From assembly GCF_000375345.1 (NCBI RefSeq), contig NZ_AQXD01000002.1, positions 229,505 through 293,504 of the forward strand: DNA of 64,000 nt, read 5' to 3'. Source of the stretch: Wohlfahrtiimonas chitiniclastica DSM 18708 (GTDB taxonomy: Bacteria; Pseudomonadota; Gammaproteobacteria; Cardiobacteriales; Wohlfahrtiimonadaceae). This document shows, in pieces, positions 23,773 through 34,448 of this stretch. A program made the translations under genes and the position numbers. Within the stretch, counting starts at the first letter, position 1; every line of letters starts with the position of its first letter. Under the pieces are notes generated by a model. It saw only the letters and a program-made list of their open reading frames with translations. It was not told the origin of the DNA and did not search any database.

Positions 23773-23789
23773 TTTTCTCGTTGAACATT

Positions 23790-23910
23790 GATCTTTGGGG
23801 CAAGGTGAGAAGGTAACTTCAATTCCTGACCGGCGGTGACAGTCCGCGAGCGCAAGCTGACTTGGTGTAATTCCAAGACCGACAGTAAAGTCTGGATGGT
23901 AAAAGATGAA
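23790..23910 (+). promoter_or_regulatory. FMN riboswitch (RFN element)
   Basis: Conserved RFN core segments appear in order: GGGGCAAGGTGA, AATTCCTGACCGGCGGT, AGTCCGCGAGCG, TGGTGTAATTCCAAGACCGACAGT and AGTCTGGATGG. These form the six-stem FMN aptamer, and it sits directly before ribD. Binding of FMN lowers expression of riboflavin genes. Downstream, TATGCCC (23955-23961) can pair with GGGCATA (23982-23988), hiding the ribosome-binding site and start codon of ribD, while GGCAT (23933-23937) can compete for ATGCC; this suggests control of translation initiation. Confidence 0.96.
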
Positions 23911-23987
23911 TGGGATAGAAGCGGCATGCCATCAGGCGGGTCGTGGCTGTCTGTTATGCCCCGAAAATAAATGAATAAAGAGGGCAT

Positions 23988-26942: not shown

Positions 26943-27410
26943 ATGCAAGTTATCGAAGGCAATTTATCCATTTCCAACAAAAAAATCGCCATTGTGGCAG
27001 GTCGTTTCAACAGCTTAATCACTAAGCAATTGATTGATGGTGCAGTTGATGCACTTAAACGCCACGGTTTGAATGAAGAGAACATTCAATTGGCATGGGT
27101 GCCAGGCGCATTTGAAATTCCATTGATCGCGCAGCAATTTGCCAAAAAAGCGGATGTGGATGCGGTGATCTGTTTAGGTGCTGTGATTCGTGGCTCAACG
27201 CCACACTTTGATTTTGTGGCCAATGAAGTGTCAAAAGGCATCGCAAGTGTGAGTTTAGAGAATGCGAAACCCATTGCTTTTGGCGTCTTAACGACAGACA
27301 GCATCGAGCAAGCACTCGAACGCGCTGGCACAAAAGCAGGGAATAAAGGTGCAGATGCTGCCATTACGGTGATTGAAATGTTAAACTTAATGGCTGCCAT
27401 TGATGGCTAA
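26943..27410 (+). CDS. ribH: 6,7-dimethyl-8-ribityllumazine synthase
   Basis: Condenses the two riboflavin precursors; forms large icosahedral or decameric assemblies. The 155-residue protein has [12 protein letters not shown] near residue 16, [10 protein letters not shown] near residue 55, [22 protein letters not shown] near residue 80 with the catalytic histidine, and [24 protein letters not shown], all typical. Fourth gene of the riboswitch-controlled operon. nusB, which often follows ribH, is absent here. Confidence 0.97.
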
Positions 27411-29823: not shown

Positions 29824-29851
29824 TTGCTAAAAGATTTATTCTGCTTATAAT
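29824..29851 (+). promoter_or_regulatory. Candidate promoter of the M-box / corA operon
   Basis: TTGCTA at 29824-29829 and a perfect TATAAT at 29846-29851 with a 16-base spacer. Transcription would begin near 29858, just before the M-box aptamer. This placement supports a transcript that starts with the riboswitch. Confidence 0.65.
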
Positions 29852-29863
29852 GCACACAAATTG

Positions 29864-30039
29864 CAAATCTAACCTCGTTAGGTGAGGCTCCTGTACGGAG
29901 ACATGCTACTGCCCAGAAACGTCCAAAGACGCCAACGGGTTTGAACAGAAACCATCGAATTAAGGTGGTTTATAACGTAGCTAGCAGTGAAGCATGCTTC
30001 ACGTCTTATGCCGTACAGTGCTAAAACTCAACGATTTGG
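29864..30039 (+). promoter_or_regulatory. M-box (ykoK) magnesium riboswitch
   Basis: The conserved elements of the M-box aptamer occur in order: CGTTAGGTGAGGCTCCTGTA, CTACTGCCCA, CGTCCAAAGACGCCAACGGG, GAACAGAAACCATCG, TAAGGTGGTTTATAACGTAG, ATGCCGTACAGTGCTAAA and ACTCAACGATTT, with P1 closed by CGTT/AACG and flanking AAATC/GATTT. The family senses Mg2+ and in Bacillus subtilis stops transcription of mgtE when Mg2+ is plentiful. Here it precedes terminator-like hairpins and three CorA-family genes, which fits. M-box RNAs are known chiefly from Firmicutes, so its presence in a gammaproteobacterial context is notable. Confidence 0.95.
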
Positions 30040-30050
30040 GGGGAGAGAGC

Positions 30051-30097
30051 ACCGTATGCGCCTTTGCGTGTATGGTTGCCCGCGTTACGGTTTTTTT
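30051..30097 (+). terminator. First terminator-like hairpin after the M-box
   Basis: ACCGTA (30051-30056) can pair with TACGGT (30086-30091), and GCG (30058-30060) with CGC (30081-30083), followed by seven T from 30091. The stem is interrupted, so it may be a weak terminator, an antiterminator element or part of the expression platform. Confidence 0.5.
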
Positions 30098-30107
30098 AAG
30101 ATCGCAT

Positions 30108-30137
30108 GCGCCTCTATTCGTTAGAGGCGCTTTTTTT
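30108..30137 (+). terminator. Strong intrinsic terminator between the M-box and corA1
   Basis: Perfect 9-bp stem GCGCCTCTA / TAGAGGCGC around a TTCG-containing loop, followed at once by seven T (30131-30137). It lies 71-98 bases after the aptamer and 37 bases before the corA1 start, the position expected for an Mg2+-controlled terminator. GCGCCT of the 5' arm is duplicated at 30058-30063, so the 3' arm has an alternative partner. Confidence 0.92.
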
Positions 30138-30173
30138 ATGCGAAATTTTTTGACTGTTTTTCGGGAGGCACCC

Positions 30174-31073
30174 ATGATTAAAACATTGAATCGTGCTCAA
30201 CATGTCTGGATTCAACTCACAGCGCCAACGCCACAAGAGCTTGAGCGCATCAGCCATGACTTTTTCATTCCTTTTTCCATGCTCAACTTACATCAAAATG
30301 GCGCAAAAAGCCGCATGATTGAGCGCCATGCAGAGCTGTTTGCCTTTATGTTGCAATTGCCGATGCGCAGTCGCTTTGATGAGGTGATGCCATTTACCGT
30401 GATGAATGTTTCCGTCATTGTGATGGGCAATGTCGTGATCACCATCAGTGAATGTGAGCATCCGATTTTAACGCAGCTTGAGCAATCCTTGACAGCCCTC
30501 AGCACTGAGGGCAATGCCACGCATCTGTTGCTGCATTTATTTGAACACACCATTGGCCGCTATTTATTGGCCATCGATGAGATCAATCGCACCGTATTGA
30601 CGGTGGAGCAGCAGATCGAAAAAGCCATCAGCAATCAGCACATTTTTGATCTACTCAATCACAATAAAAGCTATGGTGCATTCATTCGCGCATTGAAACA
30701 CAATGGTCGCGTGTTTAAGGATTTAGCTGCCAAGCGTTTATTGCTCAGTGATCATAAAACCGATGCGATGCTGCAAGATGTGATACTTGCAACACTGCAA
30801 ACCCAGAAAAAAGTGGAGATTTACAACGCGAATCTTCGAAATTTAATGGATGCCTATTCTGCGGCGATTGAGAATAATTTAAGCCTAGCGGTGCAGTATT
30901 TAACCATTTTTGTGACGATTGCTGCGATTCCGATGGCAATTGCCGGCATTTATGGCATGAATACGCCTTTACCCTTTCAAGATGAGCCTTATGCATTTGT
31001 GGCATTAGCTGGCATTGCTGCGGTGGTTGCTGCCGTTGTCATGGGCTTTTTTAAAGCCCGCCGTTATTTATAG
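30174..31073 (+). CDS. CorA-family divalent cation transporter, first of three paralogues
   Basis: Pentameric Mg2+ (or Co2+/Ni2+) channel subunit; 299 residues. The N-terminal cytoplasmic domain is followed by a long helix region (about residues 130-235) ending in LRNLMDAYSAAIENNLS, then two transmembrane helices with the signature YGMN near residue 261 between them and a basic KARRYL tail. The start is ATG 30174, with GGGAGG in front; an in-frame ATG at 30138 follows the terminator directly and has no such site, and the frame open further upstream runs through the riboswitch. First gene after the M-box, which marks it as Mg2+-responsive. Confidence 0.92.
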   Translation: MIKTLNRAQHVWIQLTAPTPQELERISHDFFIPFSMLNLHQNGAKSRMIERHAELFAFMLQLPMRSRFDEVMPFTVMNVSVIVMGNVVITISECEHPILTQLEQSLTALSTEGNATHLLLHLFEHTIGRYLLAIDEINRTVLTVEQQIEKAISNQHIFDLLNHNKSYGAFIRALKHNGRVFKDLAAKRLLLSDHKTDAMLQDVILATLQTQKKVEIYNANLRNLMDAYSAAIENNLSLAVQYLTIFVTIAAIPMAIAGIYGMNTPLPFQDEPYAFVALAGIAAVVAAVVMGFFKARRYL

Positions 31074-31081
31074 GAGAGATG

Positions 31082-32032
31082 ATGTTATCCATTTATCAAA
31101 CCCATGCGAATGGGCAGTTATTGCCAAGTGAAACCTTAGCGCACAATAGCCTCATTCACTTGGTGAATCCCACAGAAGAAGAGATCAATGTGTTGGTCAA
31201 TGAACTTCATTTGCCATTGGATTTTTTTCATAGCGTGCTTGACCGTCATGAGCGCCCACGCATTGAGCGGGACGACAATGGCACTTTGATCATTTTAAAT
31301 GTACCTGTAACGGCTGCGAACGCTGAAAATTTAACGGCACCGCCTTATCATACGGTGCCCCTTGGCATCATTCATGGGCGGGATCATCTCATCATTGTGA
31401 GCCGCGAGCCATTAACCGTGGTGGATGAAGTGTTAACGGGGCAATATGGCGATTTTTATAGCCACATGAAAACGCGCATTTCATTGTTATTGTTTAAAGC
31501 GGTGTCTGAATCGTATGAAGATCATTTGGCATTGATCAATACACAAGTGAGTCAGTTGCAAAAGAAACTCAGAGCCTCGTATAAAAATACCGAGTTGTTT
31601 GCCCTGATTAATCTCAATAAAAGTTTGGTGTTTTTCTCAACGGCGTTGAGTGCAATGACCATTTTGTATCAGCGCCTGACCCTCGGCGATACATTTAAAA
31701 TCCATGAGGATGAAAAGCAGCGCTTAGAGTCAATTTTGGTGGATTTAGAGCAATCAGCTGAAGTGATAGAAATGCGCCGCGAGAGTTTAAGTAACTTGAT
31801 GGATGCATATGCCACCATCATTCACAATAACTTAAACGCTGTTTTAAAAATGCTGACGACGCTTGCGATCGTGATGATCATTCCCACCATGATTGGCAGC
31901 ATTTTCTCCATGAACGTCGCATTGCCAGGGGAAGAAGATCCTGTATCTACCGTCATCATTGCCTCTAGCATGGTATTGATCAGTGTGATGCTGCTCATTG
32001 TCTTTTATCGAAAAAAATATTTACGCATGTAA
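31082..32032 (+). CDS. CorA-family protein with SMN instead of GMN, second paralogue
   Basis: 316-residue paralogue in the same operon, beginning 8 bases after corA1. It has the same plan: N-terminal domain, helix ending in LSNLMDAYATIIHNNLN, then two membrane helices and a basic tail (YRKKYLRM). The loop signature reads FSMN (31904-31915) where CorA proteins have YGMN; the following PFQ is replaced by PGEE. The GMN motif is the ion-selecting entrance of CorA channels and substitutions usually harm transport, so this copy may differ in selectivity, act as an exporter or regulate its paralogues. AGGAG favours ATG 31082 over ATG 31079. Confidence 0.9.
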   Translation: MLSIYQTHANGQLLPSETLAHNSLIHLVNPTEEEINVLVNELHLPLDFFHSVLDRHERPRIERDDNGTLIILNVPVTAANAENLTAPPYHTVPLGIIHGRDHLIIVSREPLTVVDEVLTGQYGDFYSHMKTRISLLLFKAVSESYEDHLALINTQVSQLQKKLRASYKNTELFALINLNKSLVFFSTALSAMTILYQRLTLGDTFKIHEDEKQRLESILVDLEQSAEVIEMRRESLSNLMDAYATIIHNNLNAVLKMLTTLAIVMIIPTMIGSIFSMNVALPGEEDPVSTVIIASSMVLISVMLLIVFYRKKYLRM

Positions 32033-32041
32033 GGGGACATC

Positions 32042-32902
32042 ATGACATTTATGAACCATTTTTCCTTGGTGGCGCCAACCATCGCAGAGCAACACGAGAT
32101 GACAGAACGTTTTAATTTACCAGCATATTTTATGCATGAAGCCACAGACATCAATGCACGCCCTAAACTTGAGCAAGAGGGCGGACATCAATTGTTGGTG
32201 ATTCATCTGCCTTATGTGGATCAACAGGTGACAGACAGCTCAATGGATGTGAAATATCGCACTCTGCCTTTTAGCATGATTCTTACGGGCGATACGTTAA
32301 TCACTGTGTGCAGTGAAAAGACGGCTTTGAGCTTTGATCATCGCACCCATATCGCCAATATTTTGGGCATTTTGCATCAAACAGCAGTGGATTACATTCA
32401 ATTGACGCAGCAGATTGAGGCGGAGATCACAGCGGCGGAAGATGAATTGTCGCGCTCTTATCGCAATCCTGAGTTGTATCGCTTGTTGTATCTCAATGAG
32501 AGTTTGCTCTACATGGCAACGGCACTCAAACAGATGCGTTGTATGATGCGTAAATTGGAAAAGGGATTGTGGTTGTTGCACAAAGAGGATCATGCCATTT
32601 TTATGGATGCTTCGGTTGAATTAGATCAAGCCTATGCCATTACGGAAATCAATCAGCTCAATGCCAATAACGTGATGGATGCATATGGCAACATCATCCA
32701 AAATCACGTGAGTCATGTGGTGAAGCTTTTAACAGCCGTGACGATTGTTTTGTCCATTCCGACCCTGATTGCAAGCATCTATGGCATGAATGTGCCACTG
32801 CCTTTTCAAGAGGCGGACAATGCATTTTATGTATTGATTGCCGTGATGGTGCTCATCAGTCTTGGCGTTGCCGGATTATTCTGGCGTAAACATTACTTCT
32901 AA
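32042..32902 (+). CDS. CorA-family divalent cation transporter, third paralogue
   Basis: 286-residue third member of the operon, 9 bases after the second. The long helix region ends in ANNVMDAYGNIIQNHVS; the signature is canonical YGMN, followed by VPLPFQEADN like the first paralogue (TPLPFQDEP). Two membrane helices and an FWRKHYF tail complete it. Its N-terminal domain is shorter than in classical E. coli CorA. The three genes clearly arose by duplication and then diverged strongly, since conservation is limited to the helix end and membrane part. Confidence 0.92.
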   Translation: MTFMNHFSLVAPTIAEQHEMTERFNLPAYFMHEATDINARPKLEQEGGHQLLVIHLPYVDQQVTDSSMDVKYRTLPFSMILTGDTLITVCSEKTALSFDHRTHIANILGILHQTAVDYIQLTQQIEAEITAAEDELSRSYRNPELYRLLYLNESLLYMATALKQMRCMMRKLEKGLWLLHKEDHAIFMDASVELDQAYAITEINQLNANNVMDAYGNIIQNHVSHVVKLLTAVTIVLSIPTLIASIYGMNVPLPFQEADNAFYVLIAVMVLISLGVAGLFWRKHYF

Positions 32903-32959: not shown

Positions 32960-33562
32960 ATGAAAAAATTATTATGCCTAAGCAGTTTAATGTTCGCATT
33001 GTCAGTTGCCCACGCACAAGAGAGCTCTTTTACAGAGGACTTTTCTAAACTCACGGATGATGTGTCAAAGTCTGTGAAAAAAGGGTGGGACAAATCAAAA
33101 GATGCCCTCAGTGACTTCTCAGATGATGCCAAAGTGCAGTTAGATAAAGCCGGCGAATCCATCAAAAGCAGTTTTGATGATTTTAAGAATAGTTATGCTG
33201 TGACAGATGCCGCGACATTACAAAAATATTTAGTGGTGGACATTCCTGCGGTTTCCCTTGAAGATGAACACTTGACGGTGACAGTGCTCTTAAAAAATAA
33301 TCAAGATAAACCGGTGAAGTTTAAAGATCTGAAAAACAAAGTCGATGTGATTGTGTTAGACCAAGACAGCATTGCCTACTTTGCCACCGATGCTTCTTTA
33401 CAGCACAACAATAAAATCATTGTGCCCGCAAAAGCTGCCGTGAAGGTGACCTGGCAGTTTGACAATGTCGCCACAACACCGGTGACGCTGCGTTTGATGA
33501 ATGCTGATTATCCTTTACCAAAAATCAGCAGCGGTTTTTCTTTAAAAAGTTTAGGCTTATGA
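32960..33562 (+). CDS. Secreted protein of unknown function
   Basis: 200-residue precursor with a typical signal peptide (MKKLL start, cleavage after SVAHA near residue 19). The mature N-terminal part (about residues 25-75) is rich in Lys, Asp and Ser with heptad-like spacing of hydrophobic residues, suggesting an amphipathic helix or coiled coil. The C-terminal part (about 90-190) has alternating hydrophobic residues and looks like a beta-sandwich domain (LTVTVLLKNNQDKPVKF, VKVTWQFDNVATTPVTLRL). I do not recognise a family. AGGAG precedes the ATG; a strong terminator follows, so it is likely a single-gene unit. Confidence 0.82.
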   Translation: MKKLLCLSSLMFALSVAHAQESSFTEDFSKLTDDVSKSVKKGWDKSKDALSDFSDDAKVQLDKAGESIKSSFDDFKNSYAVTDAATLQKYLVVDIPAVSLEDEHLTVTVLLKNNQDKPVKFKDLKNKVDVIVLDQDSIAYFATDASLQHNNKIIVPAKAAVKVTWQFDNVATTPVTLRLMNADYPLPKISSGFSLKSLGL

Positions 33563-33566
33563 ATCA

Positions 33567-33595
33567 AATCCCCAAGCATGCTTGGGGATTTTTTT
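33567..33595 (+). terminator. Rho-independent terminator after the secreted-protein gene
   Basis: 10-bp stem AATCCCCAAG / CTTGGGGATT with loop CATG, running into a T tract to 33595. It ends five bases after the stop codon region and just before the FNT channel gene. Confidence 0.92.
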
Positions 33596-33608
33596 GATGG
33601 GGGCACGC

Positions 33609-34448
33609 ATGAAAACACAGTTACCAAAAGAGGTTGAAGAACAGTTAGAAGCCATCGAAAAAGATGGTGAATTATTGCCATCAGAAGCGGCCGTGCTGCA
33701 TGAAACAGTGCGCTATGAGGGCATTCGTGTCTTAGAGCGCGATGGTTATGCATTGCTGCTCTCAGCATTGGCAGCAGGCTTTGCGATGGGGGCAGGGTTC
33801 ATTGCCAAATCCGTCATTGCCATGCACATTGAGGATCCGAATTTAAGCTTTTTACTCAGTGGTTTTGGGTACACATTAGGCTATGTGATCATCATTTTAT
33901 CGAATCAAATGCTTTTTACAGAAAACACGCTGACGGCAGTGTTGCCCTTTATGAGCCATCCTTCAAAGCGCACGTTGTATCGGATCATGCGCTTATGGGT
34001 GATTGTCTTATGTGGCAACTTATTGGGCGTTGTGGCGTTTACGCTGTCATTGATTTATCTGCCGGATTTCTCTGTGGATGTGCGTGCTCATTTGCCGGCG
34101 CTTGGGCACCACATTATGGAGAACAGTCCATATCAAATGCTGGTCAAAGGTGTGTTTGCCGGTTGGTTGATGGCGGCATTGGTATGGATGTTGCCAAACC
34201 TTGGGGACAATAAGATTTGGGGGATCATTTTCATCACCTACATCATTGCCCTTGGGGAGTTCACTCACATCATTGCCGGTTCAAGCGAGGTGTTATATTT
34301 AGTGTTTACAGGGCATGAGCACTGGAGTCACTATTTTTATCCCTTTGCCATTCCAACTTTGATTGGCAATATCTTTGGGGGCACAATTTTGTTTGGCTTG
34401 ATCTGTCATGGTGAGATCAGAAGTGACATGCCAAACAATCGCTTCTAA
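33609..34448 (+). CDS. YfdC-type formate/nitrite transporter (FNT) family channel
   Basis: Six-helix aquaporin-like anion channel family member, 279 residues. The sequence closely follows the YfdC pattern: LPSEAAVLHETVRYEG, ALLLSALAAGFAMGAGFIAK, LFTENTLTAVLPFM, LWVIVLCGNLLG, and the C-terminal LGEFTHIIAGSSEVLYLVFTG and FAIPTLIGNIFGGT. The start is ATG 33609, preceded by GGGGG; in-frame upstream starts at 33582 and 33597 fall in or beside the preceding terminator. YfdC-type proteins lack a well-established substrate; small monovalent anions are likely. Confidence 0.9.
   Translation: MKTQLPKEVEEQLEAIEKDGELLPSEAAVLHETVRYEGIRVLERDGYALLLSALAAGFAMGAGFIAKSVIAMHIEDPNLSFLLSGFGYTLGYVIIILSNQMLFTENTLTAVLPFMSHPSKRTLYRIMRLWVIVLCGNLLGVVAFTLSLIYLPDFSVDVRAHLPALGHHIMENSPYQMLVKGVFAGWLMAALVWMLPNLGDNKIWGIIFITYIIALGEFTHIIAGSSEVLYLVFTGHEHWSHYFYPFAIPTLIGNIFGGTILFGLICHGEIRSDMPNNRF

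What the first reader, a model, noticed from the sequence alone, without database searches (positions are those of the whole stretch)
29824..32902. M-box magnesium riboswitch controlling three tandem CorA paralogues in a gammaproteobacterial context
Seen: the ordered conserved segments of the M-box aptamer, a promoter just before it, terminator-like hairpins after it, and three CorA-family genes with gaps of 8-9 bases. Known: M-box RNAs sense Mg2+ and control mgtE, mgtA or corA-type genes, mostly in Firmicutes. Gammaproteobacteria more often use PhoPQ and the mgtA leader. Inference: a Mg2+-responsive operon with duplicated, diverged CorA channels, perhaps acquired by transfer. This is my best candidate for an undescribed system in the window.
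Basis: partly seen in the sequence, partly recalled or inferred. Interest (0 to 1): 0.72.

Follow-up and report, generated by a model that had tools for sequence, protein, structure and literature searches.

The report
Riboswitch-controlled three-subunit magnesium channel
An RNA element of the magnesium-sensing M-box family sits in front of three neighbouring CorA-type magnesium-channel genes that occur as the same trio in distantly related bacteria, and because the middle protein lacks the channel's signature glycine in every relative examined, the three likely form one mixed channel, predicted to be made when magnesium is scarce.

Summary
RF00380 matches 29867-30047 at 130 bits, a strong terminator follows at 30108-30137, then three CorA genes with gaps of 8 and 9 bases. 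M-boxes before mgtE are already in print for Vibrio and Chromobacterium, so the riboswitch alone is not the news. The trio is. All 17 genomes in which I read the middle gene carry it between the same two partners as far as their contigs allow, and the 16 with readable upstream DNA have an M-box: Wohlfahrtiimonas, Ignatzschineria, Alcaligenaceae and one Bacilli genome. The three proteins form three separate groups in the tree. The middle protein has SMN or AMN instead of the GMN filter in 98 of 98 members with that region, while both partners keep GMN; it is also the best conserved of the three. In proteobacteria the partners instead lack other, otherwise near-invariant pore-helix residues. I infer an obligate hetero-oligomeric (probably heteropentameric) Mg2+ channel, made when Mg2+ is low. 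Assembly, transport and Mg2+ response are untested; three independent homopentamers remain the main rival. The trio is rare and probably spread from Bacilli.

The parts
29824..29851 (+). promoter-like site TTGCTA-16-TATAAT
   Evidence: 10 of 12 consensus positions; by eye also upstream of the M-box in L031-L033
29867..30047 (+). M-box riboswitch aptamer RF00380
   Evidence: 130.4 bits, E 5.3e-29
30030..30043 (+). 3' strand of aptamer helix P1, candidate antiterminator partner
   Evidence: pairs with terminator 5' arm and loop in the truncated leader fold; same or overlapping register in 12 of 12 family trio leaders scanned, but 18-141 of 500 shuffles are as good
30091..30097 (+). T7 behind a weaker hairpin, possible pause or auxiliary terminator
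   Evidence: sequence and fold
30108..30137 (+). intrinsic terminator, GCGCCTCTA stem plus T7
   Evidence: an equivalent terminator in 12 of 12 family trio leaders scanned
30174..31073 (+). corA1 (299 aa), GMN at 30954-30962; pore-helix signature E284 S288 Q292 V298 M305 (T. maritima numbering)
   Evidence: PF01544 144 bits; 80 of 80 homologue hits GMN; residue table
31079..32032 (+). corA2 (317 aa, or 316 from the second ATG), SMN instead of GMN at 31907-31915
   Evidence: PF01544 162 bits; 98 of 98 clade members with the region are SMN (87) or AMN (11)
32042..32902 (+). corA3 (286 aa, N-terminus about 28 aa shorter than in most relatives), GMN at 32783-32791
   Evidence: PF01544 139 bits; 70 of 70 clade members GMN

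Best explanation
An M-box riboswitch match and a terminator hairpin precede three tandem corA-family genes whose order is the same in the Bacilli, Beta- and Gammaproteobacteria in which I found them, and the three proteins likely co-assemble into one hetero-oligomeric Mg2+ channel that is predicted to be transcribed only when cell Mg2+ is low. Shown: the aptamer match, the terminator, gene order, co-occurrence, the SMN/AMN motif confined to the middle protein of the trio, and its higher sequence conservation. Inferred: with Mg2+ bound, the 3' strand of helix P1 stays in the aptamer and the terminator forms; without Mg2+, that strand pairs with the terminator's 5' arm and loop and transcription runs on into corA1-corA2-corA3. 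Inferred: the proteins form a mixed pentamer, because in the proteobacterial trios each subunit lacks pore-helix residues that others keep (corA2: Gly312 to Ser/Ala; corA1: Asn288 to Ser, Lys292 to Gln, Thr305 to Met/Leu; corA3: Asn288 to Ser), so that none of the three has the complete conserved set. The trio likely arose by duplication in Bacilli and was passed to proteobacteria with its riboswitch.
For: RF00380 130 bits. Trio with M-box in 13 of 13 CorA2-bearing family genomes (in G004 the contig ends before corA3), in Paenalcaligenes and an Alcaligenes-like genome, and in a Bacilli genome (M-box 149 bits). Database proteins: equal longest-contig lengths for CorA1/CorA2 24, CorA2/CorA3 23, CorA1/CorA3 12, all three 10, against 0.35-0.53 per pair by chance. 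Three groups, each one side of a branch among the trio rows, 100/99. Motif: CorA2 0 GMN of 98; CorA3 70 of 70 GMN; CorA1 80 of 80 GMN. CorA2 is the most conserved subunit in 120 of 136 trio pairs (ties with CorA3 counted for it; mean 57% against 53% and 41%). In 76 other CorA relatives Gly312 is 76/76, Asn288 73/76, Lys292 75/76, so each loss is specific. T305L inhibited transport in T. maritima CorA (PMC3629940, passages), and CorA1 has Met or Leu there. Proteobacterial trio M-boxes are split from the mgtE M-boxes by a branch of support 0.97.
Against: No physical evidence of co-assembly; no multimer model could be run. Subunit differences are only weakly concentrated on the pore face: p 0.04 for the register I chose, 0.31 for a list of named pore residues. 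Position 302 also varies in ordinary relatives. In Bacilli-type trios CorA3 keeps Asn288 and Gly312 and could work alone; 11% of CorA3 have Met305 like CorA1, and 2 of 76 ordinary relatives have Ser288. Gly312 acts through its backbone carbonyl (PMC3629940), so Ser may still conduct. 63 of 100 CorA2 database proteins share no contig length with a partner, and for the AMN members only one CorA3 partner and no CorA1 partner was seen. G057 has the trio at a contig edge but no M-box anywhere in its assembly. Antiterminator pairing in single leaders is often no better than shuffles; the script found no terminator in the two beta leaders or the Bacilli leader.
Confidence: 0.6

Rival explanations
1. 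Three independent homopentameric channels with different affinity or ion preference are co-induced by the M-box; Ser/Ala at the first filter position of CorA2 tunes selectivity or conductance.
For: Met313 and Asn314 of the filter are kept in all three, and the glycine contributes a backbone carbonyl (PMC3629940, passage); CorA2 is well conserved; the predicted CorA2 monomer fold is an ordinary CorA (TM 0.80 to 4ev6); Bacilli-type CorA3 keeps every tabulated residue of ordinary CorA in G710 except position 284.
Against: Co-occurrence and order over two phyla, and none of the 17 genomes read has CorA2 without partners where the contig allows; in proteobacteria each subunit lacks a different set of otherwise conserved residues.
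Confidence: 0.25
2. CorA2 is a non-conducting regulatory or assembly subunit that joins CorA1/CorA3 pores and dampens or gates them, as Lpe10 modulates Mrs2 in yeast mitochondria.
For: It lacks the glycine that is invariant in 76 of 76 ordinary relatives; precedent: title of Sponder 2010, seen only in a reference list.
Against: CorA2 is the best conserved of the three and keeps Asn288, Lys292, Thr305, Met313 and Asn314, which a mere regulator need not keep.
Confidence: 0.1
3. The leader is an M-box by descent but does not respond to Mg2+ in this host, or acts on translation.
For: No expression data; the exact antiterminator is not statistically secure.
Against: Full-length 130-bit match and a terminator in 12 of 12 family trio leaders scanned.
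Confidence: 0.05

Closest known systems
M-box riboswitch RF00380 (ykoK leader, B. subtilis)
   Same: full-length aptamer match, terminator behind it, Mg2+ transporter genes downstream
   Different: stands before a three-gene corA-family cassette in Proteobacteria; the beta/gamma cases I saw in print are before mgtE (PMC9276622, passage)
CorA of T. maritima and M. jannaschii (homopentameric 2-TM-GxN channel)
   Same: fold (TM 0.80 to 4ev6 for the CorA2 model), Met313 and Asn314 of the filter
   Different: three diverged genes (24-42% identity within the three trios compared), the middle one SMN/AMN; all three score below the NCBIfam corA equivalog cut-off
Yeast Mrs2 with Lpe10
   Same: works like: a second CorA-family protein acting on a Mg2+ channel
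   Different: eukaryotic, two proteins; that they form hetero-oligomers is recalled, only a review passage and reference titles were seen
Single M-box-corA unit in Clostridiales (L041)
   Same: M-box 149 bits directly before a corA-family gene
   Different: one gene with GMN, no second CorA found in the locus

Membership tests
M-box riboswitch (RF00380) | covariance-model match above the gathering score | tested here: met
   130.4 bits against 44, model 1-169 of 169
M-box riboswitch (RF00380) | located in the leader of Mg2+ transport genes | tested here: met
   three PF01544 genes directly downstream
M-box riboswitch (RF00380) | expression platform: terminator with mutually exclusive antiterminator | tested here: inconclusive
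   terminator in 12 of 12 family trio leaders scanned; antiterminator drawable in each but 18-141 of 500 shuffles as good; an earlier test with shorter arms found no consistent pairing
M-box riboswitch (RF00380) | Mg2+-dependent change of expression | not testable with these tools
   needs in-line probing or a reporter
CorA/Mrs2 (2-TM-GxN) superfamily | PF01544 above cut-off | tested here: met
   144, 162 and 139 bits, cut-off 27
CorA/Mrs2 (2-TM-GxN) superfamily | CorA fold | tested here: met
   CorA2 model only (pLDDT 82): best PDB match 4ev6_E, TM 0.80; CorA1 and CorA3 were not modelled
CorA/Mrs2 (2-TM-GxN) superfamily | GMN (GxN) signature | tested here: not met
   met by CorA1 and CorA3; not met by CorA2, which has SMN here and SMN/AMN in 98 of 98 relatives with the region
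CorA equivalog (TIGR00383) | score above 200.75 bits | tested here: not met
   97, 112 and 83 bits
Hetero-oligomeric CorA-type channel | distinct subunits in one complex | not testable with these tools
   only indirect: co-occurrence and complementary losses

The most novel reading that the evidence does not exclude
A bacterial CorA channel that is an obligate heteropentamer of three subunits, with a broken-symmetry selectivity filter in which one subunit contributes Ser or Ala instead of the glycine of GMN, carried between phyla as a riboswitch-plus-three-gene cassette.
Probability: 0.5. Interest if true: 0.8.

Novelty: new variant of a known kind. Interest (0 to 1): 0.66.

Why it matters
CorA is the model homopentameric Mg2+ channel, and its GMN filter is treated as its signature. 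A natural trio in which one subunit never has GMN, and each subunit lacks a different set of pore-helix residues, would give a genetically marked asymmetric channel. Asymmetric states are much discussed in CorA gating (PMC8865849, passages); such a channel would let single subunit positions be mutated one at a time. It would also add a case in which gene duplication turned a homomer into a heteromer.

Tried and rejected
Novelty of an M-box in Gammaproteobacteria: rejected, since mgtE M-boxes in V. cholerae and C. violaceum are in print (PMC9276622, passage), and the other M-boxes of Ignatzschineria and relatives stand before mgtE-like genes (PF01769 confirmed for four of them, in G007 and G011).

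CorA2 as a decaying pseudogene: rejected, since it is the most conserved of the three and its motif is fixed.

Position 302 as a subunit-specific gate: dropped, because ordinary relatives vary there. Enrichment of subunit differences on the pore face: mixed (p 0.04 and 0.31; the pore lists there are partly recalled).

Antiterminator: a first duplex test with short arms, eight leaders, gave no consistent pairing; truncated-leader folds then suggested P1 3' strand pairing in two of three leaders; the follow-up is suggestive only. Its terminator finder reported none in two beta, one Bacilli and four mgtE leaders; the mgtE leaders visibly have one, so those misses are not evidence.

Plasmid search: best identity 34.5%, no row in the range of the SMN clade, 20 of 108 records listed. 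Literature: nine searches, of which I saw the listings only; none of the listed titles or abstract starts is on a tandem corA trio, an SMN CorA or a hetero-oligomeric bacterial CorA. One search was spoiled by 'coral', one search returned none, the rows shown are other heteropentamers, and searches showed only 15 of 900, 10 of 80 and 10 of 1,541. Most subscription journals are not held. Papers seen as passages: PMC3629940, PMC6972854, PMC9276622, PMC3766115, PMC8865849.
Full report
What is there. The window carries a full-length M-box (RF00380, 29867-30047, 130.4 bits), 15 bases behind a TATAAT-type promoter-like site (29824-29851). A GC-rich hairpin with seven T follows (30108-30137), and then three CorA-family genes at 30174-31073, 31079-32032 and 32042-32902. 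The window belongs to a 1.99-Mb genome whose close relatives are named Wohlfahrtiimonas, of the Ignatzschineriaceae, Cardiobacteriales. No call names the species; W. chitiniclastica is my guess. The same genome also has a separate CorA (C1:890377-891327) and one MgtE (C1:382607), and this is its only M-box.

Distribution of the M-box. In 57 genomes (own, genus, family, order, class) RF00380 was found in 15, all inside the family: 15 of 18 family genomes and 0 of 39 others. Of the 29 matches over the cut-off, 13 precede the trio and 16 precede mgtE-like genes (by eye, with PF01769 confirmed for four of them). Of two matches below the cut-off, one (L030) also precedes mgtE and one (in G008) was not read. 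On a FastTree of 26 aptamers the 13 proteobacterial trio M-boxes used, beta and gamma together, are split from the rest by a branch of support 0.97; other supports are low in places.

The trio as a unit. A search of 40 relatives with CorA2 found 13 genomes, all in the family. In all 13 an M-box lies upstream on the same strand and CorA1 precedes CorA2; CorA3 follows in 12, and in G004 the contig ends first. Five of 18 family genomes lack CorA2 (G001, G005, G006, G007, G009): two are about 80% complete, but G001, G007 and G009 are 94-99% complete, so the trio is truly patchy. In 397 genomes of the order of Heyndrickxia one carries it (G710), with M-box (149 bits), CorA1, CorA2, CorA3 in the same order; three other genomes of its genus lack it. 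So 17 of 17 CorA2 genomes show the trio as far as their contigs allow, and 16 of 16 with readable upstream DNA have the M-box. The trio is rare: 1 of 369 gammaproteobacterial genomes (own); a DNA pattern for F-S/A-M-N-V found 1 of 398 Bacillota (the centre, G710) and 1 of 398 Pseudomonadota (own). The pattern misses AGY serine codons. Named Acinetobacter, Heyndrickxia and Neisseriaceae proteins appear in all three protein lists and Alcaligenes faecalis in two. 37 of 100 CorA2 proteins share a length with some partner; 63 do not. Among the AMN (Lysinibacillus-type) proteins only P0088 does, with a CorA3; no CorA1 partner was seen for them, and the CorA1 search was weak towards Bacilli (32% for P0315).

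The middle protein lacks GMN. Of the 100 proteins of the CorA2 clade (P0001-P0098, P0100, P0101; 49% identity or more), two fragments lack the region; of the other 98, 87 have SMN and 11 AMN, none GMN. P0099, in the same list at 40%, has GMN but is nearest to CorA1 in the tree. The search listed 120 of 130 hits. All 70 CorA3-clade proteins (P0121-P0190) and all 80 CorA1 hits have GMN (P0320 falls outside the CorA1 group). Outside these clades two further SMN proteins occur (P0191, P0192), CorA3-like.

Trees and conservation. A 75-row tree holds 17 trios: the window, seven loci and nine database contigs (a tenth contig was left out because its CorA2 is a fragment). Each of CorA1, CorA2 and CorA3 is one side of a branch among the trio rows, 100/99. 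CorA1 and CorA2 branch in parallel: the Bacilli-type contig first, then two metagenome contigs, then the beta- and gammaproteobacterial ones; CorA3 shows the same family groups but an unresolved base. CorA1 has long branches, and the rooting is arbitrary. Over the 136 pairs of trios the mean identity is 41% (CorA1), 57% (CorA2) and 53% (CorA3); CorA2 is highest in 120 (ties with CorA3 counted for it) and CorA1 lowest in 136. Within one trio the proteins are 24-36% identical in two proteobacterial examples and 36-42% in the Bacilli-type one, which fits an origin in Bacilli.

Complementary losses. In T. maritima numbering, 78 CorA1, 96 CorA2 and 67 CorA3 proteins read mostly: 284 E/H/Q; 288 S/N/S (CorA3: 86% S, 13% N); 292 Q/K/K; 298 V/A or T/T; 305 M or L/T/T (CorA3: 88% T, 11% M); 312 G/S or A/G; 313 M and 314 N in all. 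In 76 other CorA relatives 288 is N in 73, 292 K in 75, 298 T in 76, 312 G in 76, 305 T in 57. Bacilli-type trios keep N288 in CorA3 and K292 in CorA1 but already have SMN in CorA2, which suggests stepwise loss and also means that CorA3 could be complete there. In T. maritima CorA the Gly312 carbonyl and Asn314 side chain line the ion entrance (PMC3629940, passages); leucine at 288, 295 or 299 is described as blocking the channel, and T305L inhibited transport (PMC3629940, passages). CorA1 has Met or Leu at 305. Differences between subunits are only weakly concentrated on the pore face (p 0.04 for my chosen register, 0.31 for named pore residues).

Mechanism. Shown: aptamer match, terminator, gene order, co-occurrence, motif. 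Inferred: the P1 3' strand 30030-30043 is shared between the aptamer and an antiterminator with about 30111-30122. When the leader is folded without the terminator's 3' arm this pairing appears in the window and in L038; L032 pairs its terminator arm with another part of the aptamer. A same or overlapping register can be drawn in 12 of 12 family trio leaders scanned (of 13; L023 was not), and it changes in step (AACGA with UCGUU here, AAUGA with UCAUU in several Ignatzschineria leaders, a mismatch in L018), but 18-141 of 500 shuffles are as good. Inferred: the three proteins make one mixed pentamer. The predicted CorA2 monomer (pLDDT 82, pTM 0.70) matches solved CorA chains (best 4ev6_E, TM 0.80); no multimer could be modelled.

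Verdict. I rate hetero-oligomerisation as the most likely reading at 0.6; it has no physical evidence yet.

Noticed in passing
window 23787-23911 (+): FMN riboswitch RF00050, 98 bits, the only other Rfam hit of the window at the gathering score; an ORF that looks like ribH by eye lies further on at 26943-27410.
   Followed up: no
window 32042-32902: CorA3 here (and in Wohlfahrtiimonas sp. G9077, L031) is about 28 residues shorter at the N-terminus than in the other complete trios (286-287 against 314-321 aa).
   Followed up: partly
protein P0194: N-terminal part like CorA2 and pore part like CorA3 with GMN: it looks like a natural CorA2/CorA3 chimera, or an assembly error.
   Followed up: partly
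proteins P0191, P0192 and P0099: A further SMN lineage (CorA3-like) whose member P0192 shares a contig length (62657) with the CorA1-like GMN protein P0099; perhaps a deeper two- or three-gene relative.
   Followed up: partly
L001-L005, L007-L009, L016, L017, L024-L030: The other M-boxes of Ignatzschineria and relatives stand before mgtE-like genes, of two types with different M-box groups.
   Followed up: partly
window 30091-30097: An extra T7 behind a weaker hairpin just upstream of the main terminator; not seen in the W. populi or W. larvae leaders.
   Followed up: partly
L057 / L041 (Clostridiales DTU073): A 149-bit M-box directly before a single GMN CorA; other Firmicute relatives scanned (L039, L040, L043) have no M-box.
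   Followed up: no
window 32960-34448: Downstream of the trio: a 200-aa protein with a signal-peptide-like start (by eye) and no confident family match, then a formate/nitrite-transporter family protein (PF01226, 158 bits).
   Followed up: no
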